From: Streptomyces sp. SAI-127
GTDB taxonomy: Bacteria; Actinomycetota; Actinomycetes; Streptomycetales; Streptomycetaceae
Assembly (NCBI RefSeq): GCF_029894425.1
Contig: NZ_JARXYJ010000001.1
Span: 5,828,001 to 5,892,000, forward strand
Direction: 5' to 3'
DNA length: 64,000 bases
The notes beneath the pieces were generated by a model. That model did not search any database and was not told the DNA's origin. It saw nothing but the letters and a program-made list of their open reading frames with translations. Positions within the stretch are counted from its first letter, which is position 1. The number at the start of each line of letters is the position of its first letter. Position numbers and translations under genes: made by a program. Below are positions 5,136-34,136 of the stretch, piece by piece.

Positions 5136-5154
5136 ATCTGACGTACCGTCAGAT
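5136..5154. promoter_or_regulatory. palindromic operator, copy 1 (perfect 8-3-8)
   Basis: Reads ATCTGACG-TAC-CGTCAGAT, a perfect 8-bp inverted repeat with a 3-base spacer. It ends three bases before the ATG of the DoxX gene, leaving no room for a Shine-Dalgarno site. The transcript is therefore probably leaderless or the operator covers the transcription start. This is the best match to the palindrome repeated at 16377, 25122, 25149, 31080, 34053 and 34118. Confidence 0.75.
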
Positions 5155-5157
5155 TCC

Positions 5158-5604
5158 ATGGACACGATCTGGCTGACCGGCGCGCAATGGCTGGCCGTCC
5201 TGCGCATCGGCCTAGGGCTGTGGTGGCTGGAGAGCTGGCGGCACAAGGACAAGAGAACGTGGTTCGAGGGCGGCGGCATCACCTGGGCCGCGGACATCGC
5301 CGCCAAGCACCGCTGGACCCCGGTCCGCAGCGGCTTCGACGTGCTGGTCGCGCCCCGCCCCAGGACGATGGCGTACGTCGTCGCCTACGCCGAACTCGCC
5401 CTCGGCGCAGGCCTGATCCTCGGCTTCCTGACCCCGCTCGCGCTGGTCGGCGGCCTGCTCCTGAACGTCCTCTACTTCACGCTCATGATCCACGACTGGG
5501 CCGAGCAGGGGCAGAACTCGATGATGGCCCTCATCTCGCTCGTGGCCCTGTTCGCCATGTCCTGGCAGACGTGGTCGCTCGACGCCGCGCTGGGCTGGTT
5601 CTGA
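5158..5604 (+). CDS. DoxX-family integral membrane protein
   Basis: 148 residues with about four hydrophobic segments (around residues 8-25, 68-85, 90-110 and 120-140), matching the small DoxX/DoxD-like membrane family. In other bacteria that family associates with quinone- or thiol-linked redox systems. The exact role here is unknown. The ATG lies immediately after operator copy 1 with no ribosome-binding site, which suggests leaderless translation. Its stop overlaps the next gene's start (TGATG), so the DUF35 protein behind it is co-expressed. Context suggests a membrane component of the catabolic regulon described in the summary. A start further downstream is possible, but the N-terminal aromatic/basic segment looks coding. 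Confidence 0.82.
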   Translation: MDTIWLTGAQWLAVLRIGLGLWWLESWRHKDKRTWFEGGGITWAADIAAKHRWTPVRSGFDVLVAPRPRTMAYVVAYAELALGAGLILGFLTPLALVGGLLLNVLYFTLMIHDWAEQGQNSMMALISLVALFAMSWQTWSLDAALGWF

Positions 5605-6020
5605 TGGGCGCGAGGTACGACCTGCCCGAGGCGGACGCCTTCACGCGGACCTACTGGGACGCGGCGGCGCGGGGCGTCCTGCTGCTCAGACACTGCGGGA
5701 CATGCGACCGGGTCCACCACTACCCCCGCGAGTTCTGCCCGCGCTGCTGGAGCGAGGACGTCTCCTGGTCCGCGGCCACCGGCCACGCCACGCTCCACAC
5801 CTGGTCCGTCGTCCACCGCAACGACCTGCCGCCCTTCAAGGACCGCACCCCGTACGTCGCCGCGGTCGTCGACCTCGCCGAGGGCCCCCGGATGATGACG
5901 GAGATCGTCGACTGCGCACACGAGGAGCTGCGGGCCGGGCTGGAGCTGGAGGCGGTTTTTCCGGACGGGGCGCCGCGGTTCAGGCCGCGCGGGGGGTCTG
6001 TGGCGGTTGGGGGTGAGTGA
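5604..6020 (+). CDS. Zn-ribbon/OB-fold DUF35 protein (first copy)
   Basis: 138 residues. The N-terminal rubredoxin-like zinc ribbon is visible as CGTC then CPRC about ten residues later (residues ~32-50), followed by the OB-fold that binds acyl-CoA. DUF35 proteins pair with thiolase-fold proteins. In actinobacterial steroid breakdown the ChsH2 DUF35 domain forms a complex with the retro-aldolase Ltp2. The start overlaps the DoxX stop by one base. No thiolase lies beside it, so its partner may be the Ltp-like protein at 15166-16335, which itself lacks an adjacent DUF35. A partial duplicate of its 3' end follows at 6077. Confidence 0.85.
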   Translation: MGARYDLPEADAFTRTYWDAAARGVLLLRHCGTCDRVHHYPREFCPRCWSEDVSWSAATGHATLHTWSVVHRNDLPPFKDRTPYVAAVVDLAEGPRMMTEIVDCAHEELRAGLELEAVFPDGAPRFRPRGGSVAVGGE

Positions 6021-6076
6021 CGGGCGTCGGCCTTGCCGGGGATCTGTTGGTGGTGGCGGAGGCGGTCGGTTGTGCC

Positions 6077-6169
6077 TGTGAGGAGCTGCGGGCCGGGCTG
6101 GACCTGGAGGCGGTTTTTCCGGACGGGGTGGCGAAATTCAGGCCGCGCGGGACGTCCGGGGCGGTTTGA
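6077..6169 (+). pseudogene. duplicated 3' fragment of the DUF35 gene
   Basis: Bases 6077-6152 repeat, with few changes, the 3' end of the gene just upstream (5921-5998). Translated, the repeat gives EELRAGLDLEAVFPDG followed by FRPRG, against EELRAGLELEAVFPDG and FRPRG in the intact gene. The stop is at 6167-6169. The copy lies in another frame relative to the parent and has no start or zinc ribbon. It is therefore a leftover of a tandem duplication or of a second DUF35 gene that was mostly deleted. Confidence 0.7.
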
Positions 6170-6177
6170 ATGGGCGG

Positions 6178-6774
6178 ATGACCGACGTCGACGATCAGCA
6201 CCTCATCCGCCCCTTCACCCCGCTGCACGGCCACGGCCTGCGCCTGTGCGCCTGGGACGCCGACTCCGACGCCCAGGCCCAGGAGTGGCTGCGCGGCGCG
6301 CTGGACCCCGAGTTCGGGCGCTGGAACACCCCTCTCACCCTGATCCACGACCTCGACGGCGCCCGTGCCGGCATGCGACGCAGGGCCGAACAGGCGGCGC
6401 AGGGCACGAGCGTGTCGTACCGGATCACGGACGAGTCGAGCGGTACGACGCTCGGACACCTCGGTATCAACGTCATCGACCACGTCCTGCGCACCGCCCG
6501 CGTCGGCTACTGGGTGCTGCCGGAGGCCCGCGGCCACGGGGTGGCCACCCGCGCCCTCCGCCTCGGCGCCCAGTGGGCCCTCACCGACCTCGGCCTGCAC
6601 CGGCTGGAACTGGGGCACGCCCTCGGCCACGGGGCCTCCTGCACCGTCGCCGAACGCTGCGGCTTCCGCTACGAGGGCACGCTGCGGGGCGCGATGTTCG
6701 AGGCGGGGCGGCACGACGCGTTCCGGGACGTCCACCTGCACGCCCGACTGGCGACGGACCCCGAACCGTCGTAA
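6178..6774 (+). CDS. GNAT-family N-acetyltransferase (RimJ/RimL-like)
   Basis: 198 residues with the acetyl-CoA pyrophosphate loop at EARGHGVATRAL, preceded by a VGYWVLPEARG strand and followed by a TDLGLHRLELGH helix/strand. This is the pattern of RimJ/RimL-type acetyltransferases that modify N-terminal amines or small amines. The ATG at 6178 was chosen over an in-frame TTG twelve bases earlier. Neither has a clear Shine-Dalgarno site. The substrate cannot be predicted. A second, longer GNAT follows 39 bp later on the same strand. Confidence 0.85.
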   Translation: MTDVDDQHLIRPFTPLHGHGLRLCAWDADSDAQAQEWLRGALDPEFGRWNTPLTLIHDLDGARAGMRRRAEQAAQGTSVSYRITDESSGTTLGHLGINVIDHVLRTARVGYWVLPEARGHGVATRALRLGAQWALTDLGLHRLELGHALGHGASCTVAERCGFRYEGTLRGAMFEAGRHDAFRDVHLHARLATDPEPS

Positions 6775-6813
6775 TTCGGAGGCGTCCGGCGCGGTCGCGC
6801 AGGATCATGAGAC

Positions 6814-8336: not shown

Positions 8337-8339
8337 GCC

Positions 8340-8765: not shown

Positions 8766-8806
8766 ACAGTTCAGGGTACTTCGCACACCTGAGGGAGGGA
8801 GGGTCG

Positions 8807-10129: not shown

Positions 10130-10214
10130 AGGTGCGTTAGAGGCCGTCTTCAAAGATCATCGGATGGTGGCTCATGGCGGGGTGATACGCCGCCATGAAC
10201 TCACGGTACCGCTG

Positions 10215-11217: not shown

Positions 11218-11288
11218 GGCTCGGCACGGTAGGCGATCTTTGTTAAGGCTGTTTGTCCCGGACTGGGAGGCTGTTCACTTCAGGCCGT

Positions 11289-15165: not shown

Positions 15166-16335
15166 CTAACGCCCCAGCACCACCGTGCCCGACGAGCAGA
15201 ACCAGCCCCCCGTCCCGGACGCCACCGCCAGCCCCGGCGCCGACCCGTCCGGGCGCCGCACCTGCCGTGCGCCCGCCTCCCCGCGCAACTGCCGTACGGC
15301 CTCCACGAGCAGGAACAGCCCGCGCATGCCCGGGTGCTGGGCGGACAGCCCGCCGCCGTCCGTGTTCACCGGCAGGTCCCCGCCCTCGACCTTCAGGCGT
15401 CCCTTCTCCACGAAGGCACCGCCCTCGCCCTTGGCGCAGAAACCGAGGTCCTCCAGCGTCACCAGCGTCATGTAGGTGAACGCGTCGTAGATCTGGGCGA
15501 GTTCGATCTCCTCGGGCCGCACCCCCGCCCGCTCGAAGGCCAGCCGTCCGCTCACCGCCGCCGGGGACACGGTGAAGTCGGGCCACTCGGACATGCTGAC
15601 GTGCGAGACGTACTCCCCGGTGCCCAGCACCCAGACGGGAGCGGTACGGCAGTCCCGTACGTACTCCTCGGCCGCGAGCAGTACCGCCGCGCCGCCGTCG
15701 GAGCGGATGCAGCAGTGCAGCTTGGTGAAGGGGTCCGCGATCATCGGGCCGGAGAGGACGTCGTCGACGGTGATCGGGTCGCGGAACATCGCGTCGGGGT
15801 TGAGGGCGGCGTTGGCGCGGGCCTGGACCGCGATCTGCGCCAGCTGCTCGATGGTCGTGCCGTGTTCGATCATGTGGCGGCGGGCCGCCATCGCGTACTT
15901 GGCGATCAGGGTGTGGCCGTAGGGCACCTCGAACTGGAGCGGGCCGCGGGCGCCGAAGGAGAGGGTGCCGGTGCGGCGGCCCGCCCTGATGTCGGCGCGG
16001 GCCGTGGAGCCGTAGACGAGCAGGACCGCGTTCGCGTGTCCGGCGGCGATCGCGTCGGCCGCGTGCGCCGCCATGACCTCCCAGGTGGACCCGCCGACCG
16101 AGGTCGAGTCGACCCAGGTGGGGCGCAGGCCCAGGTACTCGGCGATCTCGACGGGGGCGAGGGTGCCGGTGCCGGCCGAGGCGAGGCCGTCGACCAGCGA
16201 GCGGTCCAGGCCGGCGTCGGCCAGGGCGCGGCGGGCGGCCTGGGCGTGCAGGGCGTAGGGGGTCGCGTCGTTCACGCGGCCGCAGTCGGCCAGGGCCACG
16301 CCGGTGATCGCGACTTTCCGGCTCCCGGGGGGCAT
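15166..16335 (-). CDS. thiolase-fold lipid-transfer protein (Ltp2-like), first copy
   Basis: 389 residues of the SCP-x/Ltp thiolase superfamily. The usual thiolase nucleophile Cys is absent; the equivalent region reads SVGGSTWEVM. The AQIYDAFT motif near residues 278-285 and GFCAKGEGG are kept. Proteins of this type include Ltp2, a retro-aldolase acting on acyl-CoA aldols during steroid side-chain removal, which works in complex with a DUF35 protein. I infer similar aldolase rather than true thiolase chemistry. It is divergent from the acyl-CoA dehydrogenase gene with an operator palindrome between them (16377-16395). There is no adjacent DUF35 gene; the one at 5604-6020 is a candidate partner. 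Confidence 0.85.
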   Translation of the reverse strand: MPPGSRKVAITGVALADCGRVNDATPYALHAQAARRALADAGLDRSLVDGLASAGTGTLAPVEIAEYLGLRPTWVDSTSVGGSTWEVMAAHAADAIAAGHANAVLLVYGSTARADIRAGRRTGTLSFGARGPLQFEVPYGHTLIAKYAMAARRHMIEHGTTIEQLAQIAVQARANAALNPDAMFRDPITVDDVLSGPMIADPFTKLHCCIRSDGGAAVLLAAEEYVRDCRTAPVWVLGTGEYVSHVSMSEWPDFTVSPAAVSGRLAFERAGVRPEEIELAQIYDAFTYMTLVTLEDLGFCAKGEGGAFVEKGRLKVEGGDLPVNTDGGGLSAQHPGMRGLFLLVEAVRQLRGEAGARQVRRPDGSAPGLAVASGTGGWFCSSGTVVLGR

Positions 16336-16376: not shown

Positions 16377-16395
16377 ATATGACGGACCGTCAGAT
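16377..16395. promoter_or_regulatory. palindromic operator, copy 2
   Basis: ATATGACG-GAC-CGTCAGAT, one mismatch from a perfect palindrome. It lies between the divergent Ltp-like gene (start 16335) and acyl-CoA dehydrogenase (start 16417), so it could control both. Confidence 0.72.
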
Positions 16396-16416: not shown

Positions 16417-17668
16417 ATGGACGCTCGCTTCACCGCCGAACAGGACGAGATCCGAAGTGCCTTGCGGGGAACTGCTGCGCAGGCGTTGCGGGCCCGAGGA
16501 GTCGAGGAGTGCGGTCGACACTCCGGCCGGCTACGACCCGGCGCTGTGGACGGCCCTCGCCGAACAGCTGGGACTGCCGGGGCTGGCGCTGCCCGAGGCG
16601 TACGGCGGTGTGGGGTGCTCGCTGACGGAGCTGGCGCTGGCCTGCGAGGAGACGGGGCGGGCGCTGGCGCCCACGCCGTTGCTGGGCACGGCGGTTCTCG
16701 TGGCCCCGCTGGTGCTGGCCCTGGGGACGGAGAAGCAGCGCGCCGGTCTGTTGCCCCGGATGGCTTCCGGCACGTTGACCGCCGCCCTTGCCGTGCCAAC
16801 GGGGGCGGCACTGGGACTCACCGGCGACAACCGGGCCGAGTGGGCGGGCGGAGGACGTGCGGGCGGGGTCCAGGCCCGGCGGTCCGGCGGCGCGGGTGGG
16901 GGTGTCGTCGCTACGGAGGGGACGGGGAGGTCGGGTCCCGAAGAGCAACCCCGGGCTCCCGGCTGGCGGTTGTACGGCGAGGTCGACCAGGTGCTCGACG
17001 GCCACAGCGCCGACCTCCTGCTCGTGGCCGCCCATGCGGGCGGGTTCGCCCGGTCCCGTACCCTCCTCTTTCTCGTCCCCGGTGATGCCTCCGGGCTCGT
17101 GCGCACCCGGCAGCGCGCCCTCGACGCCACCCGCCCGCAGGCCCGCGTCCAACTGCGGGACGTCGAAGCTGAGTTGCTCGGTGACGACGACGGGGCCGAT
17201 GTCCTGGGTGCCCTCGCCCGCACGGGCAACACCGCCGCCACCGTCCTCGCCTGTGAGGCCGTCGGGGCCGCCGACCGTGTGCTGGAGACGACCGTCGAGT
17301 ACGTCAAACAGCGGGAGCAGTTCGGGCGGGCGGTCGGGTCCTTCCAGGCCGTGAAGCACCGGCTCGCCGATGTGTACGTCCAGCTTCAGGCAGCCCGTTC
17401 CGCGGCCTACTTCGCCGCCTGGGCCGCCGTTCACGACGAGCGGCGGGTCGGCGGGCTCGCCCTCGCCCAGGCCCTCGAAGCCCTGCGCACCGCCGCCGCC
17501 GAGGGCATTCAGCTGCACGGAGGCATCGGGTTCACCTGGGAGCACGAGGCGCAGCGGTACTTCAAGCGCGCCGCCGCGGACGAACTGCTCTTCGGCCCCG
17601 CGCACCGGCTGCGGGCGCACGCCGCCGACGCGGCGCGGCTCTTCGAGCGGGCGGAGGTGTCGGTGTGA
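16417..17668 (+). pseudogene. acyl-CoA dehydrogenase, frameshifted near the 5' end
   Basis: The ATG at 16417, after a GGGAGGGAAGAGG purine stretch, opens a typical ACAD N-terminus (MDARFTAEQDEIRSALR). The rest of the protein continues in another frame (RRRCGPEESRSAVDTPAGYD onward). The shift maps to a GGGG run at 16466-16469; removing one G restores ...LRELLRRRCGPEE. Downstream the ACAD is complete, about 415 residues in total, with KQREQFGRAVGSFQAVKH and EGIQLHGGIGFTWEHE near the end. If functional, it would be an FAD enzyme making an enoyl-CoA. The stop overlaps the Ddn-like gene by 4 bp. An error in the G run is as likely as true inactivation. Confidence 0.8.
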
Positions 17669-18135
17669 TCGGGGCGAGGGTCGTCCAGCGGGTGTCGTCC
17701 ACGCGCGGCTTCGCCAAGGTGGCGCCGCATGTGATTCCGGCCCTGGACCGGGCCGTGCACCGGATCACCCGGGGGAAGTTCCTGCTCAGCGCGCAGATGC
17801 TGCCGGGGGTCGTACTCACCTCGACGGGGGCGAGGAGCGGGCTGCCCCGGCGGACCCCGCTCGCCTGCATGCCCGAGGACGAGGGCCGTACCTGGATCCT
17901 CATCGGCTCCAACTTCGGCCGCGACGGCCACCCCGCCTGGACCGCCAACCTCCTCGCCCGCCCCGAGGCCTCGGTCAGCTGGAAGGGGCGGGACATCGAC
18001 GTGACGGCGACACTGCTGACGGGGGAGGAGCGGGCCGCCGTGTGGAAGACCGCGCTGGCGTTCTGGCCGCCGTACGCCACCTATCAGGCACGGGTCGAGC
18101 GGGAGATACGGCTCTTCCGGATCACCCGGAAGTGA
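17665..18135 (+). CDS. deazaflavin (F420)-dependent nitroreductase-family protein (Ddn-like)
   Basis: 156 residues from a GTG that overlaps the acyl-CoA dehydrogenase stop (GTGA). It belongs to the Ddn/DUF385 split-barrel family; LTSTGARSGLPRRTPL is the characteristic F420-phosphate-binding segment, followed by NFGRDGHPAWTANLLARPEA. Family members use reduced F420 to reduce quinones or enones. In Mycobacterium tuberculosis, ddn (Rv3547) lies beside the KstR2 steroid-ring genes, which parallels this neighbourhood. Translational coupling to the ACAD suggests the two act in one pathway. The terminal hairpin is at 18151-18184. Confidence 0.88.
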   Translation: MIGARVVQRVSSTRGFAKVAPHVIPALDRAVHRITRGKFLLSAQMLPGVVLTSTGARSGLPRRTPLACMPEDEGRTWILIGSNFGRDGHPAWTANLLARPEASVSWKGRDIDVTATLLTGEERAAVWKTALAFWPPYATYQARVEREIRLFRITRK

Positions 18136-18208: not shown

Positions 18209-18856
18209 TTATTTCGTCGGCTTCTTGCCCGTCACGCCCAGGTGCACCAACAGCGCCAGATTCGGCTTGAGTTCGGCCTGCTTGACGCCCCAGGTCTGGA
18301 AGCCCTTCTGGTGCGAGGCCACCGCCGCGAGCATCGCGACGAGGGAACCCGCGACCGCGGCCGGGTTGACGTCCTTGTCGACCTTGCCCTTGGACTGGAG
18401 CTCGGTGACCGCGTCCACGAGGGAGTTGTTCACCGAGTTGAGGATCTTCATGCGGATCTTGTAGAAGCGTTTGTCGCCCTCGGCGGCACCGAGGTCGACC
18501 ACGCGCAGGATCGCGTCGTTCTTGCGCCAGAACTCCAGGAAACCGTCCACGAGTTCCTGCGCGGTCTGCCATCCCGCCTTGCCGACCCACGACCGGCCTT
18601 CGAGGAGCTGCGTCAACTGACCGCCCTCGGTGGCCATTTGCTCGGCCACCTCCAGGACGGCGCCCTCGACGTCCGGGAAGTACTGGTAGAAGGTCGCGGG
18701 TGAAGTGCCCGCCTTCCGGGCGACATCGATGACTTTGACGTCCCGGTAAGGGGAGGAGCTGAGCATCTCGCTGAGGCAGTCGAGCAGCTTCTGCCGGGTC
18801 GCCTGCCCACGCCGGCCGGCCACACGGCCGTCGACGGTACGCACTTGTCCTGTCAT
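18209..18856 (-). CDS. TetR-family transcriptional regulator (candidate regulator of the palindrome regulon)
   Basis: 215 residues. The N-terminal HTH (RGQATRQKLLDCLSEML, then VIDVARKAGTSPATFYQYF, residues ~18-62) is typical TetR. The C-terminal ligand domain contains FWRKNDAILRVVDLG and a long helical tail. It is the only TetR gene in the window and lies inside the region where the 19-bp palindrome recurs. A weaker copy (18848-18866) overlaps its own start codon, as expected of an autoregulated repressor. I infer, without proof, that it binds the palindrome and responds to an acyl-CoA or pathway intermediate. It does not resemble the KstR or KstR2 sequences I know. Confidence 0.92.
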   Translation of the reverse strand: MTGQVRTVDGRVAGRRGQATRQKLLDCLSEMLSSSPYRDVKVIDVARKAGTSPATFYQYFPDVEGAVLEVAEQMATEGGQLTQLLEGRSWVGKAGWQTAQELVDGFLEFWRKNDAILRVVDLGAAEGDKRFYKIRMKILNSVNNSLVDAVTELQSKGKVDKDVNPAAVAGSLVAMLAAVASHQKGFQTWGVKQAELKPNLALLVHLGVTGKKPTK

Positions 18857-18866
18857 GCCGTCAGCT
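18848..18866. promoter_or_regulatory. degenerate operator over the tetR start
   Basis: TCCTGTCA-TGC-CGTCAGCT. The right half matches the family palindrome at seven of eight positions; the left half keeps only four of eight. It overlaps the tetR ATG (18854-18856). On its own it would be weak evidence; position and context make autoregulation plausible. Confidence 0.4.
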
Positions 18867-22284: not shown

Positions 22285-22764
22285 ATGCATTCACGGGGGC
22301 GTGTTCTCAGGTTTACGGCGGTCATGGCGACGGTGGTGCTCGCGCTGACGGGCTTCTCCAGCGGCCACAAGAGCAGCGGGCGGCACAAGAGCAGCCACAG
22401 GGACAGTGACAGCGGCGGTGGCTGCAGCAGCTCCAGCCAGAAACACGACAGCTATACACCGCGCAGCACCAGCACCCGCCGCAGCTCGGCACTCCAGGAC
22501 GGCACCGCGCTGGTGGTGAGCTGCGCGACGAAGGCGATCCCCTACGCGACGGTCGAGGTCACCAACCCGAACAGCCGCCAGGCCACCTTCGAGGTCGAGT
22601 TCGCCTTCGTGGACGCGGCAGGCAAGTCGCTGAGCTCGCAGACCAATAAGATCTCGGTGCCCGCGAGGGGCACGTCGAACGTCCAGGTGAAGGCGGGTCA
22701 GTCCCTCCTGGCCGAGCTCGACCACTGCCAGGTCGAGCCGGAAGCCGATCTGGTCACGCGCTAG
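22285..22764 (+). CDS. secreted protein with Ser/His-rich spacer, unknown function
   Basis: 159 residues. The N-terminal hydrophobic leader (RFTAVMATVVLALTGFS) has no clear lipobox. A low-complexity Ser/His/Lys/Gly stretch follows at residues ~25-70. The C-terminal ~90 residues read as a small Ig-like/FxLD-type beta domain (TVEVTNPNSRQATFEVEFAFVD, then ISVPARGTSNVQV) with a Cys pair (VVSCATK, DHCQVE). It is similar in style to small Streptomyces surface proteins. It follows the kinase gene by 33 bp. Its last 4 bases overlap the convergent crotonase gene. Confidence 0.7.
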   Translation: MHSRGRVLRFTAVMATVVLALTGFSSGHKSSGRHKSSHRDSDSGGGCSSSSQKHDSYTPRSTSTRRSSALQDGTALVVSCATKAIPYATVEVTNPNSRQATFEVEFAFVDAAGKSLSSQTNKISVPARGTSNVQVKAGQSLLAELDHCQVEPEADLVTR

Positions 22765-23534
22765 CGCGACCTGAAGCCGGACTGCCGGGAACGGAACAGT
22801 TCGGTCTGCCGGTCCGGGGGGAGATTCCCGAGCGAGACGAGGTGCGGGGCCTGCGCGAAGCCCTGTTTCACGGCGGCCTCCTTGGCGGCCCAGAGCGCGC
22901 GGACCGTGCCCTGCACCCCTTCCGGCGGATACCCGGCGATGACCTCGGCGGCGGCGACCGCGGCCGCCGGCGCCCCGCCCGGTGACGTCAGTTCGGTGAC
23001 GAGCCCGACGGCGTGGGCGCGCTCGGCGGAGAGCCGTTCCGCCGTCCCCATCAGCGCCATCCGCGCGGCCTCCCCGTGCGGCATGACCAGCGCCATGAGC
23101 ACCGACTCGTAGGCGCTGACCATCCCGTAGGTGGTGTGCGGGTCGAAGAAGGTGGCGGCCGGGTCGGCGACGAGGAAGTCGCTCTCACCCAGGAGGTAGA
23201 AGGCGCCACCGCAGGCCATCCCGTTCACGGCGGCGATGACCGGTTTCCAGAGGTCGTTGGACTTCGGCCCGATGCGGAGGAGCGGATCATCCGCCATGTA
23301 GGGCGAGTTGGGCTGCGGAACCTCGGCGTCCCGGTCAAGGCCCGTGCAGAAGGCCCGCTCCCCGGCACCGGTCAGGACCACCGCCCGTACGGAGTCGTCG
23401 AAGCGCAACTGCTGCCAGGTGGCGACGAGTTCGTCCCGCATGTCCAGATCGATGGCGTTCAGCCGGTGCGGCCGGTCGAGGGTGACGACGGCGACACCGG
23501 TGTCCTTGTCGGCGGTGACCCGCAGGCCGGTCAC
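22761..23534 (-). CDS. enoyl-CoA hydratase/isomerase-family protein (crotonase fold)
   Basis: 257 residues from the GTG at 23534, which overlaps the DUF35 stop (GTGA). An ATG 12 bases earlier is the alternative. The crotonase fold is clear (VAVVTLDRPHRLNAIDLDMR, then AVVLTGAGERAFCTG). At the positions where enoyl-CoA hydratases carry their two catalytic glutamates the protein reads GGAFYLLGES and FDPHTTYG, so both appear replaced. Chemistry other than hydration (isomerase, hydrolase, C-C cleavage) is therefore possible. It is the last gene of a thiolase-DUF35-crotonase operon controlled from the double operator at 25122-25167. Confidence 0.87.
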   Translation of the reverse strand: MTGLRVTADKDTGVAVVTLDRPHRLNAIDLDMRDELVATWQQLRFDDSVRAVVLTGAGERAFCTGLDRDAEVPQPNSPYMADDPLLRIGPKSNDLWKPVIAAVNGMACGGAFYLLGESDFLVADPAATFFDPHTTYGMVSAYESVLMALVMPHGEAARMALMGTAERLSAERAHAVGLVTELTSPGGAPAAAVAAAEVIAGYPPEGVQGTVRALWAAKEAAVKQGFAQAPHLVSLGNLPPDRQTELFRSRQSGFRSR

Positions 23535-23938
23535 GACAGCACCCATTGCGGAAGCCCGTCGGAGAACACCACGTGCACCCGGGCGCCGATCCGGATCCGG
23601 CCCGGATCGAGGGAGTTCAGCGGCGCCCCGGCCGCGCTGACCAGGTTCCCGACCAGCCGTATCCGAGGAGCCTCCTCCAACTCGACGACCACCACGTTGT
23701 ACGGCGCCTGGGCCGCGTAGTCGGGCAGGAGGGGCGGGTGGGGGACGACGTAGGACCAGACGCGGCCACGCCCGGAGACCGGGCGCCACTCCTCGGCGAA
23801 CGACCGGCAGTGCGGGCAGCAGGGCCGGGGCGGAAAGCGGAGTTCCCCGCAGTCGGCGCAGGCCTGGACGCGCAGTTCACCCCGGGCGGCGTACTCCCAG
23901 AAGGGGACGCCCGTGGTGTCCTTCACCGGTTCGAGCAT
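23531..23938 (-). CDS. Zn-ribbon/OB-fold DUF35 protein (second copy)
   Basis: 135 residues. The zinc ribbon is formed by CADC and CPHC (residues ~27-44), followed by the OB-fold (GRVWSYVVPHPPLLPDY, then FSDGLPQWV). It sits between the Ltp-like thiolase gene (1-base gap) and the crotonase gene (4-base overlap). This tight arrangement matches the known pairing of DUF35 proteins with Ltp2-type aldolases, so I infer a heteromeric complex with the product of 23940-25091. Confidence 0.9.
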   Translation of the reverse strand: MLEPVKDTTGVPFWEYAARGELRVQACADCGELRFPPRPCCPHCRSFAEEWRPVSGRGRVWSYVVPHPPLLPDYAAQAPYNVVVVELEEAPRIRLVGNLVSAAGAPLNSLDPGRIRIGARVHVVFSDGLPQWVLS

Positions 23939-23939: not shown

Positions 23940-25091
23940 TCAGCTCCTGTTGGTCAGCAGCAGGGCGGAGGTGGGGACGCCCTCGCCGGCGGTGACGAGG
24001 CAGGTGGTGGCGTCCGGTACCTGGGCGGTGCTGGTCCCGCGCAGCTGCCGTACGCCCTCGTCGATGAGGTTGAAGCCGTGCACGTAGGCCTCGGACAGCC
24101 CCCCGCCCCCGGTGTTGATCGGCAGCCGTCCGCCGATCTCCAGGGCCCCGCCCTCCGTGAAGGAACCGCCCTCTCCGCGACCGCAGAATCCGTAGCCCTC
24201 CAGGGAGAGCGGGACGAGGGAGGTGAACGCGTCGTAGATCTGGGCCACGTCGACGTCCTGCGGGGTGAAGTCGGCGTGTTTCCACAGGTGCCGGGCGGCG
24301 GTCCAGGCGGGGCCGGTGAGCGGGTCGTCGTTCCAGTAGTTGACCATGCCGTGGTGCTGGGCGGGCAGGCCCTGGGCGGCGGAGTGGACGTAGACGGGGG
24401 CGTTCGGGCAGTCGCGGGCGCGCTCCCGGCTGACCAGCACACAGGCCAACGCCCCGTCCGTCTCCAGGCAGTTGTCGAAGAGGCAGAGGGGTTCGCTGAT
24501 CCAGCGGGAGGACATGTACATCTCGCGGGTCAGGGGGCGGTCGTACATGATCGCGGCGGGGTTCTGGTTGGCGCGGTTGCGGCAGGCGAGGGCGACGTTG
24601 AAGAGGTGGTCGCGGGTGGCCCCGTACTCGTGCAGGTAGCGGCGGGTGAGCATGGCGATCTCGTCGGCGGGGCGGAGCAGGCCGAAGGGTCTCGTCCACT
24701 GGGCCGGGGTCGGCAGCTGGACGCTGGTGTTGGTCCAGGGACGGGGGCCCGAGCCGCGCTTGCGGGACCGCCAGGCGACGCCGACCGTGGCCTGGCCGCT
24801 CGCTATCGCCGCCGCGAGATGCGCGACCGTCGCGCACGAACCGCCGCCGCCGTAGCCGACCTTGCTGAAGAAGGTGAGGTCGCCGAGGCCGACGGCCTTG
24901 GCCAGCTCGACCTCGTCCGTCTCCTCCATGGTGTACGAGGCCAGGGCGTCGACCTCGCCGGGGGCGATCCCGGCGTCGTCGAGGGCGGCGAGAACAGCCC
25001 GGCAGGCCAGGGTTCTCTCGTCCTCGGCGAGGCGTTTGGCGAAGGGAGTCCGTCCGATGCCGACGATCGCCGTGGCGTCCTTGAGGGTCAC
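23940..25091 (-). CDS. thiolase-fold lipid-transfer protein (Ltp2-like), second copy
   Basis: 383 residues from GTG 25091, which has GGAGG about ten bases upstream. An in-frame GTG seven codons earlier lies on top of that box and is less likely. The fold is that of the first copy: GGGGSCATVAHLAAAI, the AQIYDAFT motif, and GFCGRGEGGSF. Here a Cys does occur in the GGSC segment, unlike the copy at 15166. The role is probably retro-aldol or thiolytic shortening of an acyl-CoA, together with the adjacent DUF35 protein. The promoter region is shared with the divergent FadD3-like ligase and contains two operator palindromes. Confidence 0.88.
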   Translation of the reverse strand: MTLKDATAIVGIGRTPFAKRLAEDERTLACRAVLAALDDAGIAPGEVDALASYTMEETDEVELAKAVGLGDLTFFSKVGYGGGGSCATVAHLAAAIASGQATVGVAWRSRKRGSGPRPWTNTSVQLPTPAQWTRPFGLLRPADEIAMLTRRYLHEYGATRDHLFNVALACRNRANQNPAAIMYDRPLTREMYMSSRWISEPLCLFDNCLETDGALACVLVSRERARDCPNAPVYVHSAAQGLPAQHHGMVNYWNDDPLTGPAWTAARHLWKHADFTPQDVDVAQIYDAFTSLVPLSLEGYGFCGRGEGGSFTEGGALEIGGRLPINTGGGGLSEAYVHGFNLIDEGVRQLRGTSTAQVPDATTCLVTAGEGVPTSALLLTNRS

Positions 25092-25121
25092 GCTGCACGC
25101 ACCTCCGCACACTGTGAGGCC

Positions 25122-25140
25122 TGCTGACAGCCCGTCAGGC
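25122..25140. promoter_or_regulatory. palindromic operator, copy 3
   Basis: TGCTGACA-GCC-CGTCAGGC, 31 bases upstream of the Ltp-like gene start. Core CTGAC and GTCAG are intact. With copy 4 it forms a pair whose centres are 27 bp apart, between two divergent genes. Confidence 0.6.
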
Positions 25141-25148
25141 TACAGCTA

Positions 25149-25167
25149 ATCTGACGGGTAGTCAGCT
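25149..25167. promoter_or_regulatory. palindromic operator, copy 4
   Basis: ATCTGACG-GGT-AGTCAGCT. It lies 29 bases before the FadD3-like start. The left half is perfect; the right half keeps GTCAG. It probably controls the ligase, with copy 3 serving the divergent operon. Confidence 0.68.
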
Positions 25168-25196: not shown

Positions 25197-26753
25197 ATGG
25201 AGTGGCGGAGCATCCCGGATCTGGTCGCCCGGGCCGCGGAGCGGTACGCCGCCGCGGAGGCGGTCGTGGAGGGCCGGAACCGGGTCACGTACGGCGAGTT
25301 GGGCGCCCGCGTGGAGCGGGCGGCGGCCGCGTGCATGGCGAACGGCGTGCGGCCGGGCGACCGGGTGGCCGTCTGGGCCCCCAACTCCCTGGACTGGATG
25401 GTCTCGGCGCTGGGCGCGGTGTCGGCGGGCGCGGTACTGGTGCCCCTCAACACCCGTTTCAAGGGCGCCGAGGCGGCGGACGTGCTGCGCCGGAGCCGGA
25501 CCCGGCTGCTGTTCGTGACCGGCACCTTCCTGGGGACGTCGTACGTGGCGTCCCTGCGCCGGGCGGTCGCGGAGGGGCCGGAGCTGCCGGAGCTGGAACA
25601 GGTGGTGGTGCTGTCGGACGACGCCCCGGCGGACTTCCGCACCTGGAAGGACTTCCTGGCGAGCGGGGACGGGGTCGGTCGGTCCGAGGTACGGGCGAGG
25701 GCCTCGGCGGTCGAGGGGTCCTGGCCCTCGGACATCGTCTTCACCTCCGGGACCACCGGCCGCCCCAAGGGCGCGGTGATCACCCACGAACAGACCTTGC
25801 GGGCCTACGAGGTCTGGTGCGAACTGGCCGGGCTGCGGCAGGGCGACCGCTACCTGATCGTCAACCCCTTCTTCCACACCTTCGGTTACAAGGCCGGGGT
25901 GATCGCCTGTCTGATGCGCGGGGCGACGATGATCCCGCAGCCGGTGTTCGACGTCGACACCGTGCTGGCGAACATCGCGGCGGAACGCGTCTCGGTGCTG
26001 CCGGGCCCACCGACCCTCCACCAGTCGCTCCTCGACCATCCGGCGCGGGATTCCCACGACCTGTCCGCGCTGCGCCTGGTGGTGACGGGCGCGGCGGTGG
26101 TGCCGCTCAGGCTGGTCGAGCAACTGCACGGCGAGCTGGGCGTGGAGACGGTCCTGACCGCGTACGGCCTCTCGGAGGCGAGCGGCATCGTGACGATGTG
26201 CCGGCGCGGCGACCCGCTGCCGGTGATCGCGTCGACGTCCGGGCGGGCCATCCCCGGGACGGAGGTGCGGGTCGAGGCGCCGGCCGGCGAGCCCGGCGAG
26301 GTCCTGGTCCGCGGCTTCAACGTGATGCGCGGCTACTACGAGGACGAGGCGGCCACCGCGGAGGCCGTGACGGAGGACGGCTGGCTGCGCACGGGGGATG
26401 TGGGAGTCCTGGACGCTTCCGGAAACCTGCGGATCACCGACCGGCTGAAGGACATGTTCATCGTGGGCGGCTTCAACGCCTACCCGGCGGAGATAGAGCA
26501 ACTGCTCGGGCTGCACCCGGCGGTGGCCGACGTGGCGGTCGTGGGTGTGCCCGACGCACGGCTCGGCGAGGTCGGCAGGGCGTACGTGGTCCGCCGCCCG
26601 GGCTCGGTCCTCACCGCCGACGACCTCATCGCCTGGGCCCGTCGGGAGATGGCGAACTACAAGGTGCCGAGAACGGTGGAGTTCGTGACGGGGCTGCCGC
26701 GGAACGCGAGCGGGAAGGTGGTGAAGGGGGAGCTGCGAGGCCGGGTCCGCTAG
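25197..26753 (+). CDS. FadD3-like acyl-CoA ligase (AMP-forming)
   Basis: 518 residues of the ANL adenylating superfamily, activating a carboxylate with ATP and then CoA. Motifs: the P-loop-like TSGTTGRPKG near 183, FFHTFGYKAG, TAYGLSEASG, GWLRTGDVG, and the acyl-transfer Lys in GKVVKGELR near 505. From memory of the family it is closest to FadD3, the HIP-CoA synthetase acting on the steroid C/D-ring propionate: it shares INPFFH/VNPFFH, GYKAG, VLPGPPT..QSLLDHPAR and LRITDRLKDM. The gene follows operator copy 4 with a GGGGAGG box. The true acid substrate is not proven. The terminator is at 26809-26843. Confidence 0.92.
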   Translation: MEWRSIPDLVARAAERYAAAEAVVEGRNRVTYGELGARVERAAAACMANGVRPGDRVAVWAPNSLDWMVSALGAVSAGAVLVPLNTRFKGAEAADVLRRSRTRLLFVTGTFLGTSYVASLRRAVAEGPELPELEQVVVLSDDAPADFRTWKDFLASGDGVGRSEVRARASAVEGSWPSDIVFTSGTTGRPKGAVITHEQTLRAYEVWCELAGLRQGDRYLIVNPFFHTFGYKAGVIACLMRGATMIPQPVFDVDTVLANIAAERVSVLPGPPTLHQSLLDHPARDSHDLSALRLVVTGAAVVPLRLVEQLHGELGVETVLTAYGLSEASGIVTMCRRGDPLPVIASTSGRAIPGTEVRVEAPAGEPGEVLVRGFNVMRGYYEDEAATAEAVTEDGWLRTGDVGVLDASGNLRITDRLKDMFIVGGFNAYPAEIEQLLGLHPAVADVAVVGVPDARLGEVGRAYVVRRPGSVLTADDLIAWARREMANYKVPRTVEFVTGLPRNASGKVVKGELRGRVR

Positions 26754-27392: not shown

Positions 27393-27438
27393 GGTCATTC
27401 GCTCCCCGCTTGGTGTGCTTCGTGTATGGATCGGCAGA

Positions 27439-27476: not shown

Positions 27477-27621
27477 CTTGGGCCGCTCACTCTAATTCGC
27501 CGGTGTGCGGCCCCTGCGCGCCGATCCGTCTGCCCCCCGACGCGACGGATCGACTGCCCTTGAGGATGGACGTCGGCGATAAACGAATGATGAACGCCGA
27601 ACCGGAGGCCGGGCGGGCTTG

Positions 27622-30909: not shown

Positions 30910-31079
30910 CGCCGTCCCCCTAGGGCCTGTTTACAACCCCGTCAGTTTGCCTTGTCCATGGCGGATGCGTCAGCTGTGGAGAGGCTGATCACAGATGGGC
31001 GCGCGGTAAGTCACAAGGTCCTCACCCTCTCTCCGCACACTTCCGCACAGGAACCGTCGTCATCGGCCGCCCCCCACCC

Positions 31080-31098
31080 AGCTGACGGACCGTCAGAT
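31080..31098. promoter_or_regulatory. palindromic operator, copy 5
   Basis: AGCTGACG-GAC-CGTCAGAT, ending 19 bases before the amidohydrolase ATG. It shares the close-to-start placement of copy 1 and would control the amidohydrolase-LLM-SDR operon. Confidence 0.72.
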
Positions 31099-31117
31099 CG
31101 GCGCTACCGTGAGCGCC

Positions 31118-32350
31118 ATGGAGACCACGACGGCACTTCCGAAGATCATCTCCGTCGACGACCACACGGTGGAGCCCTCCGACGTCTGGCAGAACCGGCT
31201 CCCGAAGAAGTACCTCGACACCGGCCCTCGCGTAGTCCGCGCCCCGCTCAAGGAGATCAGCTTCCTGGGCGGCCGCTTCAAGCCCGTGATGGGCGCCCCC
31301 GGGGACGACGGACCCCTGGGCGACTGGTGGCTGTACGAGGGACTCCAGCGCCCCCTCACCCGCCTCGACACCGCGGTCGGCTACAGCAGGGACGAGATCA
31401 AGCTGGAGGTCATCACCTACGAGCAGATGCGCCCGGGGTCGTACGACGTTCCCGCCCGCCTCGCCGACATGGACGTCAACCACGTCCAGTCGGCCGTCTG
31501 CTTCCCGACCTTCCCGCGCTTCTGCGGCCAGACCTTCACCGAGGCCAAGGACCACGAACTGGGCCTGCTCTGCGTCCAGGCCTACAACGACTGGATGGTG
31601 GAGGAGTGGTGCGGCCCCGACGCGCAGGGCCGGCTCATTCCGCTCACCCTCATCCCGCTGTGGGACGCCGAACTGGCGGCGGCGGAGGTTCGCCGCAACG
31701 CCGCCCGGGGCGTCCGCGCCGTCGCCTTCTCCGAGATACCCCCGCACCTGGGCCTGCCCTCCGTCCACTCCGACGACTGGGACCCCTTCCTCGCCGCCTG
31801 CGACGAGACCGGCACGGTCATCTCGATGCACATCGGCTCCAGCAGCCGTATGCCCTCCACCTCCGCCGACGCCCCGCCCGCCGTCGGCTCCACCATCACC
31901 TTCGCCAACTGCTGCTTCTCGATGGTCGACTGGCTGATGAGCGGCAAGTTCGAGCGCTTCCCGAACCTCAAGGTCATGTACGCGGAAGGCCAGATCGGCT
32001 GGATCCCCTACATCCTGGAGCGCGCCGACGTGGTCTGGGAGGAGAACCGCGGCTGGGGCGGCGTCGCCGACAAGGTCCACCGCCCGCCGTCCGAGCTCTT
32101 CACCGAGCACGTCTACGGCTGCTTCTTCGACGATGCCTTCGGGCTGCGCAACCTCGACTCCATCGGCGTCGCCAACGTCCTCTACGAGACCGACTACCCC
32201 CACTCCGACTCCACCTGGCCCAAGTCCCGCGAGGTCGGGGAGGCCCAGATGGGGCACCTGGACGCCGACGTGGTGGAGCGGATCGTCCGCGGCAACGCCA
32301 TCGACCTGCTCGGCCTCACCCCGGACGGCCTCTGGGACGGTCCGAAGTGA
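31118..32350 (+). CDS. amidohydrolase-2 family metal-dependent hydrolase (TIM barrel)
   Basis: 410 residues from ATG 31118; an in-frame GTG at 31109 is the alternative and neither has a good Shine-Dalgarno site. The N-terminal metal-ligand region reads IISVDDHTVEPSDVW. Further landmarks are MHIGSSSRMPS in the middle and NVLYETDYPHSDSTWPKS near the end, supplying the conserved acidic residue. This is the ACMSD-like amidohydrolase-2 family, whose members decarboxylate or hydrolyse ring-derived acids. The gene starts an operon: the LLM oxidoreductase start overlaps its stop (TGATG), and an SDR follows. The reaction on this pathway's substrate is unknown. Confidence 0.87.
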   Translation: METTTALPKIISVDDHTVEPSDVWQNRLPKKYLDTGPRVVRAPLKEISFLGGRFKPVMGAPGDDGPLGDWWLYEGLQRPLTRLDTAVGYSRDEIKLEVITYEQMRPGSYDVPARLADMDVNHVQSAVCFPTFPRFCGQTFTEAKDHELGLLCVQAYNDWMVEEWCGPDAQGRLIPLTLIPLWDAELAAAEVRRNAARGVRAVAFSEIPPHLGLPSVHSDDWDPFLAACDETGTVISMHIGSSSRMPSTSADAPPAVGSTITFANCCFSMVDWLMSGKFERFPNLKVMYAEGQIGWIPYILERADVVWEENRGWGGVADKVHRPPSELFTEHVYGCFFDDAFGLRNLDSIGVANVLYETDYPHSDSTWPKSREVGEAQMGHLDADVVERIVRGNAIDLLGLTPDGLWDGPK

Positions 32351-33264
32351 TGGAGTACGGCATCCAGCTCCCCGTCCAGTCCCAGAGCACGATCTACGCC
32401 GAGCCCTGGGAGGCCGGCGCCGGGCCCGAAGACCTCGCCGAGGTGGCCGGGGCCGCCGACCGCGCCGGGTTCGCGTACATAGCGGCCTGCGACCACGTGG
32501 CCGTCCCACGGCGCCTCGCCTCCGCGATGAGCACGGTCTGGTACGACCCGGTCGCCACCCTCGCCTTCCTGGCGGGCGTGACCGAACGGGTGCGGCTGCT
32601 GAGTCATGTGGCGGTGGTCGGGCTGCGGCACCCCCTGCTCACCGCCAAGCAGTACGCCACCCTCGACCATCTGAGCGGCGGCCGGCTGATCCTCGGCGTC
32701 GGCGCGGGACATGTGCAGGAGGAGTTCGAGGCGCTCGGGGTCGACTTCGCGGGTCGCGGTGCCGTCCTGGACGAGTCGATCGACGCCCTGCGCAAGGCCC
32801 TGGGGCCCGAGGAGTTCCCCGAACACCACGGCAAGTTCTACGACTTCGAGGGTCTCGGTCAGCGTCCCCGGCCCGCGCAGTCCCGCGTACCGGTGTGGGT
32901 CGGCGGGTCCTCCCCGGCCGCTGTACGCCGTGCCGCGCTCAAGGGCGACGGGTGGCTGCCCCAGGGAGACCCCCGGGACCGGCTGCCCGCGCAGATCGAC
33001 CGGATACGGCGGCTGCGGGCGGAGGCGGGCCTCGACGGGCCGTTCAGCGTCGGAGCCATCGCCGAGCCGCTCTACGTCGGCACGCCCACCTGGGACGTCG
33101 GCCGCCGGACGCTCAGCGGCGCGCCCGACGAACTCGCCGAGTCCCTGCGTGCCTACCGCGCGATGGGCGTGGACCAGATCCAGGTGCGCTTCCGCAGCCG
33201 CGACCGAGCCGAACTCATCGACCAGATCTCGGCGTTCGGCGCCGACACCGCCCCCCACCTCTGA
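32350..33264 (+). CDS. LLM-class F420-dependent oxidoreductase
   Basis: 304 residues, bacterial luciferase-like TIM barrel. Typical features are MEYGIQLP at the start, WYDPVATLAFLAGVTERV, QYATLDHLSGGRLILGVGAG, and VPVWVGGSSPAAVRRAA. This subgroup generally uses F420 as hydride carrier, reducing or oxidising C=C or C-O groups. The ATG overlaps the amidohydrolase stop by one base, and the SDR follows 11 bp downstream, so all three should be co-translated under operator copy 5. The substrate is unknown. Confidence 0.9.
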   Translation: MEYGIQLPVQSQSTIYAEPWEAGAGPEDLAEVAGAADRAGFAYIAACDHVAVPRRLASAMSTVWYDPVATLAFLAGVTERVRLLSHVAVVGLRHPLLTAKQYATLDHLSGGRLILGVGAGHVQEEFEALGVDFAGRGAVLDESIDALRKALGPEEFPEHHGKFYDFEGLGQRPRPAQSRVPVWVGGSSPAAVRRAALKGDGWLPQGDPRDRLPAQIDRIRRLRAEAGLDGPFSVGAIAEPLYVGTPTWDVGRRTLSGAPDELAESLRAYRAMGVDQIQVRFRSRDRAELIDQISAFGADTAPHL

Positions 33265-33275
33265 GGAGTCACCGC

Positions 33276-34046
33276 ATGGGCAAGCTGGACGGACGTGTCG
33301 TCCTCGTCACCGGCGCGGCGCGCGGGCAGGGCGAGCAGGAGGCCCGGCTGTTCCGGGAGGAGGGCGCCGAGGTCGTCGTAGGCGATGTGCTGGACGAGCA
33401 GGGGAAGGCGCTCGCCGAGGAGATCGGGGCGCTGTACGTCCACCTGGACGTGAGTCAGGAGTCCGACTGGCGGCGGGCGGCACAGGCCGTCGTCGAGGAG
33501 TACGGCCGGGTCGACGGGCTCGTCAACAACGCCGGCATCCTGCGCTTCAACTCCCTTCTCGACACCCCCCTCGACGAGTTCATGCAGATCGTGAACGTCA
33601 ACCAGGTCGGCTGCTTCCTCGGCATCAGGACCGTGGCGCCGGTCCTGTCCGACGGCGGCACGATCGTCAACACCGCCTCCTACACCGGGGTGACCGGGAT
33701 GGCGGGGGTGGGCGCCTACGCGGCCTCCAAGCACGCGATCCTCGGGCTCACCCGGGTAGCCGCGCTGGAGCTGGCACCGCGCGGTATCCGGGTCAACGCC
33801 ATGTGCCCGGGTGCCGTCGACACCGCCATGTCCAACCCGGCCGTCCTGGACCCGTCGGCGGACGGCGAGGAGGCATCCCGGGGGCTCGACCGGTTCTACC
33901 GCAAGGTCGTCCCGCTGGGCCGGATCGGGCGGCCGGAGGAGGTGGCGGCGCTCGCGCTCTTCCTGACCTCCGCCGACTCCTCGTACATCACCGGCCAGCC
34001 GTTCGTGATCGACGGCGGGTGGCTCGCCGGGGTCTCCGTCATCTGA
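33276..34046 (+). CDS. short-chain dehydrogenase/reductase (hydroxysteroid dehydrogenase-like)
   Basis: 256 residues with the complete classical SDR set: TGAARGQG for NAD(P), LVNNAG, Ser in NTASYTG, and YAASK with Tyr near 148 and Lys near 152. The C-terminal SSYITGQPFVIDGGWLAG is also typical. By eye it resembles 3-alpha/20-beta-hydroxysteroid dehydrogenase of Streptomyces. A GAGGAG box precedes the ATG. It is the last gene of the operator-5 operon; two further operators follow immediately. It oxidises a secondary alcohol or reduces a ketone, probably on a CoA-linked or ring intermediate. Confidence 0.9.
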   Translation: MGKLDGRVVLVTGAARGQGEQEARLFREEGAEVVVGDVLDEQGKALAEEIGALYVHLDVSQESDWRRAAQAVVEEYGRVDGLVNNAGILRFNSLLDTPLDEFMQIVNVNQVGCFLGIRTVAPVLSDGGTIVNTASYTGVTGMAGVGAYAASKHAILGLTRVAALELAPRGIRVNAMCPGAVDTAMSNPAVLDPSADGEEASRGLDRFYRKVVPLGRIGRPEEVAALALFLTSADSSYITGQPFVIDGGWLAGVSVI

Positions 34047-34052
34047 CGGAAC

Positions 34053-34071
34053 ATCTGACTGGCCGTCAGCT
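34053..34071. promoter_or_regulatory. palindromic operator, copy 6
   Basis: ATCTGACT-GGC-CGTCAGCT, seven bases past the SDR stop. Its centre is 65 bp from that of copy 7, so both probably act on the promoter of the LLM-amidohydrolase-aldehyde dehydrogenase operon. Confidence 0.68.
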
Positions 34072-34117
34072 ATTGACGGTGTATGCGCCCGGTGCCACAG
34101 TCGGCGGCAGATCAGGA

Positions 34118-34136
34118 ATCTGACGATGCGTCAGAA
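34118..34136. promoter_or_regulatory. palindromic operator, copy 7
   Basis: ATCTGACG-ATG-CGTCAGAA, one mismatch at the outer base. It lies 39 bases before the TTG start of the LLM oxidoreductase. Confidence 0.72.

What the first reader, a model, noticed from the sequence alone, without database searches (positions are those of the whole stretch)
5136..34136. A 19-bp palindrome defines a local regulon across 29 kb
ATCTGACG-NNN-CGTCAGAT or close variants occur at 5136, 16377, 25122, 25149, 31080, 34053 and 34118, with a weaker one at 18848. All lie in short intergenic gaps just before genes of one functional type (DoxX/DUF35, Ltp-like, acyl-CoA dehydrogenase, FadD3-like, amidohydrolases, LLM enzymes); no good copy was seen elsewhere in the window. 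The spacing, half-site length and gene set fit a dedicated TetR-type repressor, and the only TetR gene sits in the middle. It is not the KstR or KstR2 motif as I know them.
Basis: partly seen in the sequence, partly recalled or inferred. Interest (0 to 1): 0.85.

Follow-up and report, generated by a model that had tools for sequence, protein, structure and literature searches.

The report
Genome-wide TetR switch for lipid breakdown
A short mirror-image DNA word marks the promoters of about twenty mostly lipid- and sterol-breakdown gene groups across this Streptomyces-type chromosome, and comparative evidence points to one uncharacterised regulator, encoded in the middle of the window, as the protein that reads it.

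Summary
In detail: six strong copies of ATCTGACG-N3-CGTCAGAT lie in the window; two further listed copies (25122, 18848) are weak. Chance gives 0.31 hits.

The regulon is not local. The genome has 26 copies with at most 2 mismatches; by my reading 20 lie at promoters, including those of a cholesterol oxidase, a FadD3-type ligase, Ltp/DUF35 genes, acyl-CoA dehydrogenases and LLM enzymes.

The window's only TetR gene (18209-18856) is the best candidate reader. Its orthologues co-occur with the motif in two partly overlapping genome samples. 15 of 27 orthologue loci from other genera carry a copy near the TetR gene's own start (0.03 expected), and relatives of target genes carry copies in other families. 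The cholesterol-oxidase site is present in 20 of 20 close orthologues and 0 of 10 paralogues examined.

The motif is not that of KstR or KstR2. Family f80 has 109-218 core copies per genome that look like a different, hairpin-type repeat.

Binding, repression and ligand are inferred. A steroid-like ligand is plausible, but no KshA was found, so a full classical steroid pathway is not supported. I found no description of this regulator in the papers searched. New member of a known kind.

The parts
5136..5154 (.). operator, ATCTGACGTACCGTCAGAT, perfect, just before the DoxX-like/DUF35 pair
   Evidence: 32.5 bits
5158..5604 (+). DoxX-like membrane protein (22.9 bits, just under Pfam cut-off 23.6)
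5604..6020 (+). DUF35/ChsH2-type protein (zf-ChsH2 + OB_ChsH2_C)
15166..16335 (-). thiolase-like / lipid-transfer-protein-type enzyme, divergent from the 16377 operator
16377..16395 (.). operator, 1 mismatch, between the Ltp-type gene and the acyl-CoA dehydrogenase gene; a site lies within 4.5 kb downstream of the TetR start in 67 of 70 Streptomyces loci that hold that much DNA
16417..17668 (+). acyl-CoA dehydrogenase gene; first codons and the body lie in different frames (frameshift or assembly error), not mended
   Evidence: C-terminal part 16970-17668
17665..18135 (+). F420H2-dependent quinone reductase family protein
18209..18856 (-). candidate regulator: TetR_N + TetR_C_38, 215 aa, EthR-like predicted fold
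18848..18866 (.). weak site across the TetR start codon (CTGAC-N5-GACAG on the minus strand), present in 80 of 80 Streptomyces loci; part of it is coding
22761..23534 (-). enoyl-CoA hydratase family
23531..23938 (-). DUF35/ChsH2-type protein
23940..25112 (-). Ltp-type thiolase-fold protein; best solved relative 6ok1 (342 bits)
25122..25140 (.). weak site (5 mismatches, 8.2 bits) beside the 25149 operator
25149..25167 (.). operator, 2 mismatches, between Ltp and FadD3-type genes
25197..26753 (+). FadD3-family acyl-CoA ligase (803 bits, cut-off 657)
31080..31098 (.). operator, 1 mismatch, before the amidohydrolase/LLM/SDR genes
31118..32350 (+). Amidohydro_2 protein; a 61% identical relative sits behind a perfect operator in genome G294
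32350..33264 (+). F420-dependent LLM oxidoreductase; a 59% identical relative lies beside a site in genome G436
33276..34046 (+). SDR oxidoreductase
34053..34071 (.). operator, 2 mismatches
34118..34136 (.). operator, 1 mismatch, before the LLM gene
34206..35294 (+). LLM (luciferase-like) oxidoreductase; the frame is open from 34176
35405..37042 (+). Amidohydro_3 protein, probably downstream in the same transcription unit (inferred)

Best explanation
The 19-bp palindrome is the operator of the TetR-type protein encoded at 18209-18856. Shown by computation: the motif is real, sits mainly at promoters, is kept at fixed positions, co-occurs with this protein's family across Actinomycetota, and lies at the family's own gene start in many distant genomes. 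Inferred: a dimer binds each palindrome, covers the promoter or start region of about 20 lipid/sterol-type catabolic operons and weakly its own gene, and lets go when a hydrophobic acyl-CoA or steroid-like intermediate fills its EthR-like pocket. The pathway looks like oxidation and thioester-based shortening of a branched or polycyclic lipid (cholesterol oxidase, FadD3/CasI-like ligases, acyl-CoA dehydrogenases, Ltp-DUF35 pairs, F420/LLM oxidoreductases). Its exact substrate is not known.
For: Site significance; genome-wide 93 hits with at most 3 mismatches versus 3 for the reversed control. Promoter placement. Phylum sample, 296 genomes: 20 with an orthologue (at least 130 bits, a threshold I set after seeing the scores) average 8.65 exact core sites, 276 without average 0.31 (Mann-Whitney p = 4e-20; the 11 orthologue genomes outside the genus, p = 2e-11). 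Class sample, 296 genomes: at least 5 sites in 31 of 44 orthologue genomes (5 f80 genomes set aside) versus 2 of 247 without. Site at the TetR gene's own start in 15 of 27 orthologue loci from other genera, 0.03 expected; 14 of 22 without f80. At least one site in 75 of 80 Streptomyces loci. Cholesterol-oxidase promoter: 20 of 20 orthologues of at least 70% identity (own genome included), 0 of 10 paralogues of 54-64%; 30 of 46 listed matches examined. Relatives of targets behind sites in other families: amidohydrolase 61-67%, acyl-CoA dehydrogenase 61%, LLM 59%, EthD-type protein 33-59%. Enzyme identities. EthR-like fold, mean pLDDT 90.9.
Against: No binding or expression data. In Streptomyces the regulator's own site is weak (5 mismatches) and partly coding. 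12 of the 27 orthologue loci have no own-start site, nor has L052 (G050), which was left out of the 27 because its match contains a stop. Some orthologue genomes have few exact sites: G050 0, G372 0, G016 1, G040 1, G400 1, G102 2, G362 3, G436 3, G460 4, and in the own genus G605 0, G481 1, G562 1, G571 2, G613 2, G461 3, G171 4. G478 (10), G162 (7), G100 (5) and G480 (5) have sites without a detected orthologue. Two Streptomyces loci with ample DNA (L144, L157) have no site, and some core matches in Streptomyces lie by genes with no evident catabolic role (L091, L092, L093, L095). The genome samples are phylogenetically structured and overlap, and the p-values treat genomes as independent. 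KshA_C was not found in the own genome, which speaks against a classical steroid-ring pathway.
Confidence: 0.85

Rival explanations
1. The same regulator and operator, but the regulated pathway is not steroid catabolism: it handles another branched, cyclic or aromatic carboxylic acid, with cholesterol oxidase as only one target. (Not exclusive of the best explanation, which leaves the substrate open.)
For: No KshA_C match in the own genome. Ligase and dehydrogenase hits also resemble cyclohexanecarboxylate-CoA ligase and pimeloyl-CoA dehydrogenase, below cut-off. HsaB-like (191 of 230 bits) and CasI-like (608 of 900 bits) matches are below cut-off. Cyclase, EthD-type, LLM and amidohydrolase genes have no fixed place in known steroid pathways (recalled).
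Against: A cholesterol oxidase (756 bits to 1b4v) is a conserved target. The FadD3 match is above its cut-off. The Ltp-type protein is closest to 6ok1 (named there only 'lipid-transfer protein'; that it is a steroid side-chain aldolase is recalled). In genome G400 the orthologue lies about 5 kb from a KstR-like gene (214 bits against cut-off 280; best solved relative KstR, 157 bits).
Confidence: 0.45
2. A different transcription factor, for example the KstR homologue at C1:7312086-7312619 of the own genome, binds the palindrome and the TetR gene is only a neighbour.
For: A KstR-type homologue is present in 30 of 31 genomes of the genus including this one. Four genomes without a detected orthologue have 5 or more sites.
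Against: Published KstR and KstR2 motifs differ. The best site in four KstR-homologue loci (of 30 matches) has 5-6 mismatches. The motif tracks the 18209-18856 family and its own gene starts. Two of the four exceptions (G478, G480) belong to families with orthologues and are 68% and 93% complete. G162 and G100 remain unexplained.
Confidence: 0.08
3. The palindrome is a terminator-type hairpin or repeated element rather than an operator.
For: Family f80 genomes carry 109-218 copies of the bare core, four of the 16 examined between convergent genes.
Against: In the own genome the copies sit mainly before starts and carry conserved A/T ends, and in its genus they keep positions such as about -26 of cholesterol oxidase. 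In the f80 loci examined the flanks show no such preference.
Confidence: 0.03

Closest known systems
KstR (Rv3574) cholesterol repressor
   Same: TetR family; palindromic operator; represses itself and a wide lipid regulon (passages of PMC1995591)
   Different: Operator TnnAACnnGTTnnA, 14 bp; a separate KstR-type homologue exists in the own genome; the window protein does not find KstR in the PDB at E <= 0.001
KstR2
   Same: TetR family repressor of a cholesterol-catabolism gene set (passages of PMC3068626); FadD3 belongs to that set (recalled)
   Different: Operator AnCAAGnnCTTGnT, 14 bp, three promoter regions near its gene; here 19 bp and about 20 promoters
KstR3 of Mycolicibacterium neoaurum (Mn_4965)
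   Same: TetR-type negative regulator of an aldolase (atf1) + DUF35 (chsH4) + reductase operon in sterol side-chain breakdown (passages of PMC10398937)
   Different: No operator seen ('motif' and 'palindrom' absent from its main text); only one gene cluster went up in the mutant; orthology not tested because no sequence was at hand
SRTF1 of Nocardioides simplex
   Same: TetR-type steroid-responsive factor with a palindromic site (passages of PMC7062782 and PMC7807495)
   Different: 22-bp palindrome and three sites in one gene island; letters of the site not seen, so not compared
EthR of Mycobacterium tuberculosis
   Same: Nearest solved fold, TM-score 0.75-0.80 of the query; ligand-binding TetR repressor
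   Different: 17-18% identity; different regulon (recalled)

Membership tests
TetR family (TetR_N + TetR_C_38) | Pfam domains above gathering score | tested here: met
   TetR_N 26.7 bits (cut-off 24); TetR_C_38 243.8 bits (cut-off 23.9)
TetR family (TetR_N + TetR_C_38) | all-helical fold with N-terminal HTH | tested here: met
   AlphaFold2 model, mean pLDDT 90.9; EthR-like
TetR family (TetR_N + TetR_C_38) | dimeric binding to a palindromic operator | not testable with these tools
   palindrome and phylogenetic link only
KstR | match to the KstR equivalog model NF033703 | tested here: not met
   not among the four families with E <= 0.001 for the protein
KstR | operator TnnAACnnGTTnnA | tested here: not met
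   consensus is ATCTGACGnnnCGTCAGAT
KstR2 | operator AnCAAGnnCTTGnT | tested here: not met
KstR3 (M. neoaurum) | orthology to Mn_4965 | not tested
KstR3 (M. neoaurum) | controls aldolase + DUF35 genes | tested here: inconclusive
   Ltp-type and DUF35 genes lie behind sites, but control is not shown
classical 9,10-seco steroid catabolism | KshA | tested here: inconclusive
   no PF19298 match in the own genome; among the 14 control genomes only C. glutamicum rang, below cut-off, so sensitivity is not established

The most novel reading that the evidence does not exclude
This is a further, deeply conserved sterol/lipid regulator of Actinomycetota beside KstR and KstR2: one TetR_C_38 protein with a 19-bp operator governs cholesterol oxidase, Ltp/DUF35 side-chain enzymes and F420/LLM oxidoreductases across Streptomyces and other families of the class and phylum, and marks an unstudied Streptomyces route for sterol or sterol-like lipid breakdown that does without KshA.
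Probability: 0.35. Interest if true: 0.72.

Novelty: new member of a known kind. Interest (0 to 1): 0.58.

Why it matters
All 28 genomes of the own genus in the class sample carry this protein, among them all 9 of the phylum sample, yet I found no description of it or of its operator in the papers searched (only openly licensed papers, mostly seen as listings). It offers a specific, testable regulator for Streptomyces cholesterol oxidase genes, a ready list of co-regulated enzymes of unknown substrate, and possibly a new lipid- or steroid-responsive sensor.

Tried and rejected
Local regulon: rejected, because the motif is genome-wide. KstR/KstR2 operator: rejected on the published motifs. Terminator or repeat: rejected for Streptomyces, but it is the likely reading in family f80. 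I first took the 109-218 copies there as possible support for a huge regulon and dropped that. f80 is left out of the class comparison and no f80 genome was in the phylum sample. The five f80 loci are, however, among the 27 own-start loci, with one hit.

Whole steroid pathway: KshA_C not found, so I do not claim it.

Partial looks. One search saw 16 of 248 f80 sites in two genomes. Of the 21 orthologue genomes outside the own genus, I fetched 17 and had G050; G458, G468 and G570 were not fetched, nor the second copies in G284 and G102. The 30 loci hold one site per genome. In the full 19-mer, the 8 orthologue genomes outside the own genus have 0-2 mismatches; so does G064 (0; 62% complete, no orthologue found). 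Of 16 other genomes without an orthologue, 13 have 3-4; the exceptions are L073 and L081 (1 each) and L088 (2). The 5 loci of the own genus have 2-3, so not every core match there need be a target; L094 is the SDR/EthD pair.

The class counts (at least 5 sites) were tallied by eye from the table. The 75 of 80 was recounted. The 20/4/2 split of the 26 sites is my reading, made with a home-made GC-frame gene finder. For two of the 20 the nearest predicted start is far: 8629457 (462 bp to the Ltp-type gene) and 3792569 (367 bp to the predicted ABC gene start; the DNA printed suggests an earlier one). That the G genomes of the own genus are Streptomyces is inferred from the named relatives. Paper search was badly chosen and gave nothing useful. 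PMC3511530, seen as passages, has no TGACG or CGTCA in its main text.
Full report
OBSERVATION. The pattern ATCTGACG-N3-CGTCAGAT has 7 hits with at most 3 mismatches in the window against 0.31 expected, and 60 permuted half-sites give 0.10 on average. Six are strong: 5136, 16377, 25149, 31080, 34053, 34118. The seventh hit (34041) overlaps 34053 out of register. A TetR profile finds one clear TetR ORF among 333.

GENOME SCALE. The window belongs to a 10.7 Mb genome of three contigs. The closest named relatives of its regulator are from Streptomyces canus and neighbours. The genome has 93 copies with at most 3 mismatches, against 3 for the reversed pattern. Of the 26 with at most 2 mismatches, 20 are at promoters by my reading, 4 are inside predicted genes and 2 are unclear. 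Twelve of the 20 fall in a 126-kb stretch (5,769,136-5,894,936) that contains the window; eight are scattered. So the regulon is concentrated here but not local.

TARGETS. Genes behind the sites include a DoxX-like/DUF35 pair, Ltp-type thiolase-fold enzymes with DUF35 partners, acyl-CoA dehydrogenases, a FadD3-family ligase above its cut-off (803 against 657 bits), amidohydrolases, LLM oxidoreductases and SDRs. Outside the window: a cholesterol oxidase (756 bits to 1b4v), a CasI-like steroid-22-oyl-CoA synthetase relative (608 bits, below its cut-off of 900), an HsaB-like flavin reductase (191, below 230), a nitronate monooxygenase and a putative cyclase. Two targets do not fit easily: an ABC-transporter region and a glyoxalase-type gene.

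REGULATOR. The protein at 18209-18856 has TetR_N and TetR_C_38 domains, an EthR-like predicted fold (mean pLDDT 90.9; TM-score 0.75-0.80 of the query at 17-18% identity) and no close solved relative by sequence. It is not matched by the KstR model.

LINK BETWEEN REGULATOR AND MOTIF. (a) Phylum sample of 296 genomes: 20 with an orthologue (at least 130 bits, threshold set after seeing the scores) average 8.65 exact core sites, 276 without average 0.31, maximum 7. The 11 orthologue genomes outside the genus have 11, 5, 7, 1, 7, 11, 11, 0, 5, 2 and 1. (b) Class sample of 296 genomes (sharing genomes with the first): 49 have an orthologue at E <= 1e-35; with the 5 genomes of family f80 set aside, 31 of 44 have at least 5 sites against 2 of 247 without. 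(c) Own-start sites: 15 of 27 orthologue loci from other genera have a copy with at most 3 mismatches between -350 and +20 of the matched start; 0.03 expected. Without the five f80 loci it is 14 of 22; with L052, left out because of a stop in the match, 15 of 28. In the five f81 loci the site lies at -40 to -56, in the f79 locus at -22. In five f85 loci, whose open frames reach further upstream, it lies at -246 to -282 and ends about 20 bp before the first possible start. (d) In Streptomyces, CTGAC-N5-GACAG spans the start codon in 80 of 80 loci; part of it is coding, so this is weaker evidence.

CONSERVATION OF TARGET SITES. Of the 80 Streptomyces loci, 75 have at least one site in the DNA held; three of the five without are contigs under 5 kb. 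A site lies within 4.5 kb downstream of the TetR start in 67 of 70 loci that reach that far, and within 8.5 kb upstream in 44 of 54. The cholesterol-oxidase promoter has a site with at most 3 mismatches at -23 to -29 or at -41 in 20 of 20 orthologues with at least 70% identity (the own gene included) and in 0 of 10 paralogues with 54-64%; 30 of the 46 listed matches were examined. In other families, relatives of own targets lie behind sites: amidohydrolase 61-67% identical (G294), acyl-CoA dehydrogenase 61% (G064, where no orthologue of the regulator was found; 62% complete), LLM 59% and EthD-type 59% (G436), EthD-type 33% (G284).

CONFOUNDER. Five genomes of family f80 carry 109-218 exact core copies each. 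In the 16 loci looked at, of 248 sites in two genomes, the flanks show no A/T preference and four copies lie between convergent genes. I read this as a different, hairpin-type element. It is outside the profile figures in (a) and (b); for (c) both counts are given.

AGAINST. Several orthologue genomes have few or no exact sites, and G478, G162, G100 and G480 have 5-10 sites without a detected orthologue. 12 of the 27 orthologue loci have no own-start site. Genomes are not independent samples.

MECHANISM. The placement of sites on starts and promoter regions fits a repressor (inferred). A hydrophobic ligand is inferred from the fold and the gene set. A steroid-like one is favoured by cholesterol oxidase, FadD3, the Ltp/DUF35 pairs and a KstR-like gene about 5 kb from the orthologue in G400, and disfavoured by the missing KshA (sensitivity not established).

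KNOWN SYSTEMS. KstR and KstR2 use different 14-bp operators (passages). The nearest functional analogue in print that I found is KstR3 of M. neoaurum, a negative regulator of an aldolase/DUF35 operon (passages); orthology is untested. SRTF1 (passages) is another steroid-responsive TetR protein, with a 22-bp site whose letters I did not see. In N. simplex two further candidate motifs differ from this one (Lcin1, a TCCCGGT[C/G]ACCGGGA palindrome, and the non-palindromic Lcin2; passages of PMC7593942). A search of the open-licence library for six core spellings gave two unrelated papers, and the listings of the other searches showed nothing that names this regulator. Papers outside that library were not searched.

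VERDICT. A real operator and, very probably, its regulator: a TetR-type lipid/sterol-catabolism regulon of genome-wide extent in Streptomyces with relatives across Actinomycetota. New member of a known kind; binding and ligand remain to be tested.

Noticed in passing
genomes G363, G382, G397, G411, G424 (loci L242-L257): Family f80 genomes have 109-218 exact copies of CTGACG-N3-CGTCAG per genome; of 16 examined, four lie between convergent genes and the flanks are not conserved: a repeated hairpin or terminator-like element of its own.
   Followed up: partly
window 16417-17668: The acyl-CoA dehydrogenase gene begins in one frame and continues in another: a frameshift or an assembly error.
   Followed up: no
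genomes G481, G562, G605, G613: Genomes of the own genus of about 6 Mb keep the TetR gene but have only 0-2 exact core sites; what the regulator still does there is unclear.
   Followed up: no
genomes G162 and G100: 7 and 5 exact core sites but no detected orthologue of the regulator.
   Followed up: no
own genome C1:7312086-7312619: A KstR-type homologue (48% identical to the G400 protein) is present here and in 30 of 31 genomes of the genus examined; its role where KshA was not found is open.
   Followed up: partly
L020:6137-6246 (C1:5769136-5769245): Two operators 91 bp apart between a divergent ligase and acyl-CoA dehydrogenase gene pair about 59 kb before the window.
   Followed up: partly
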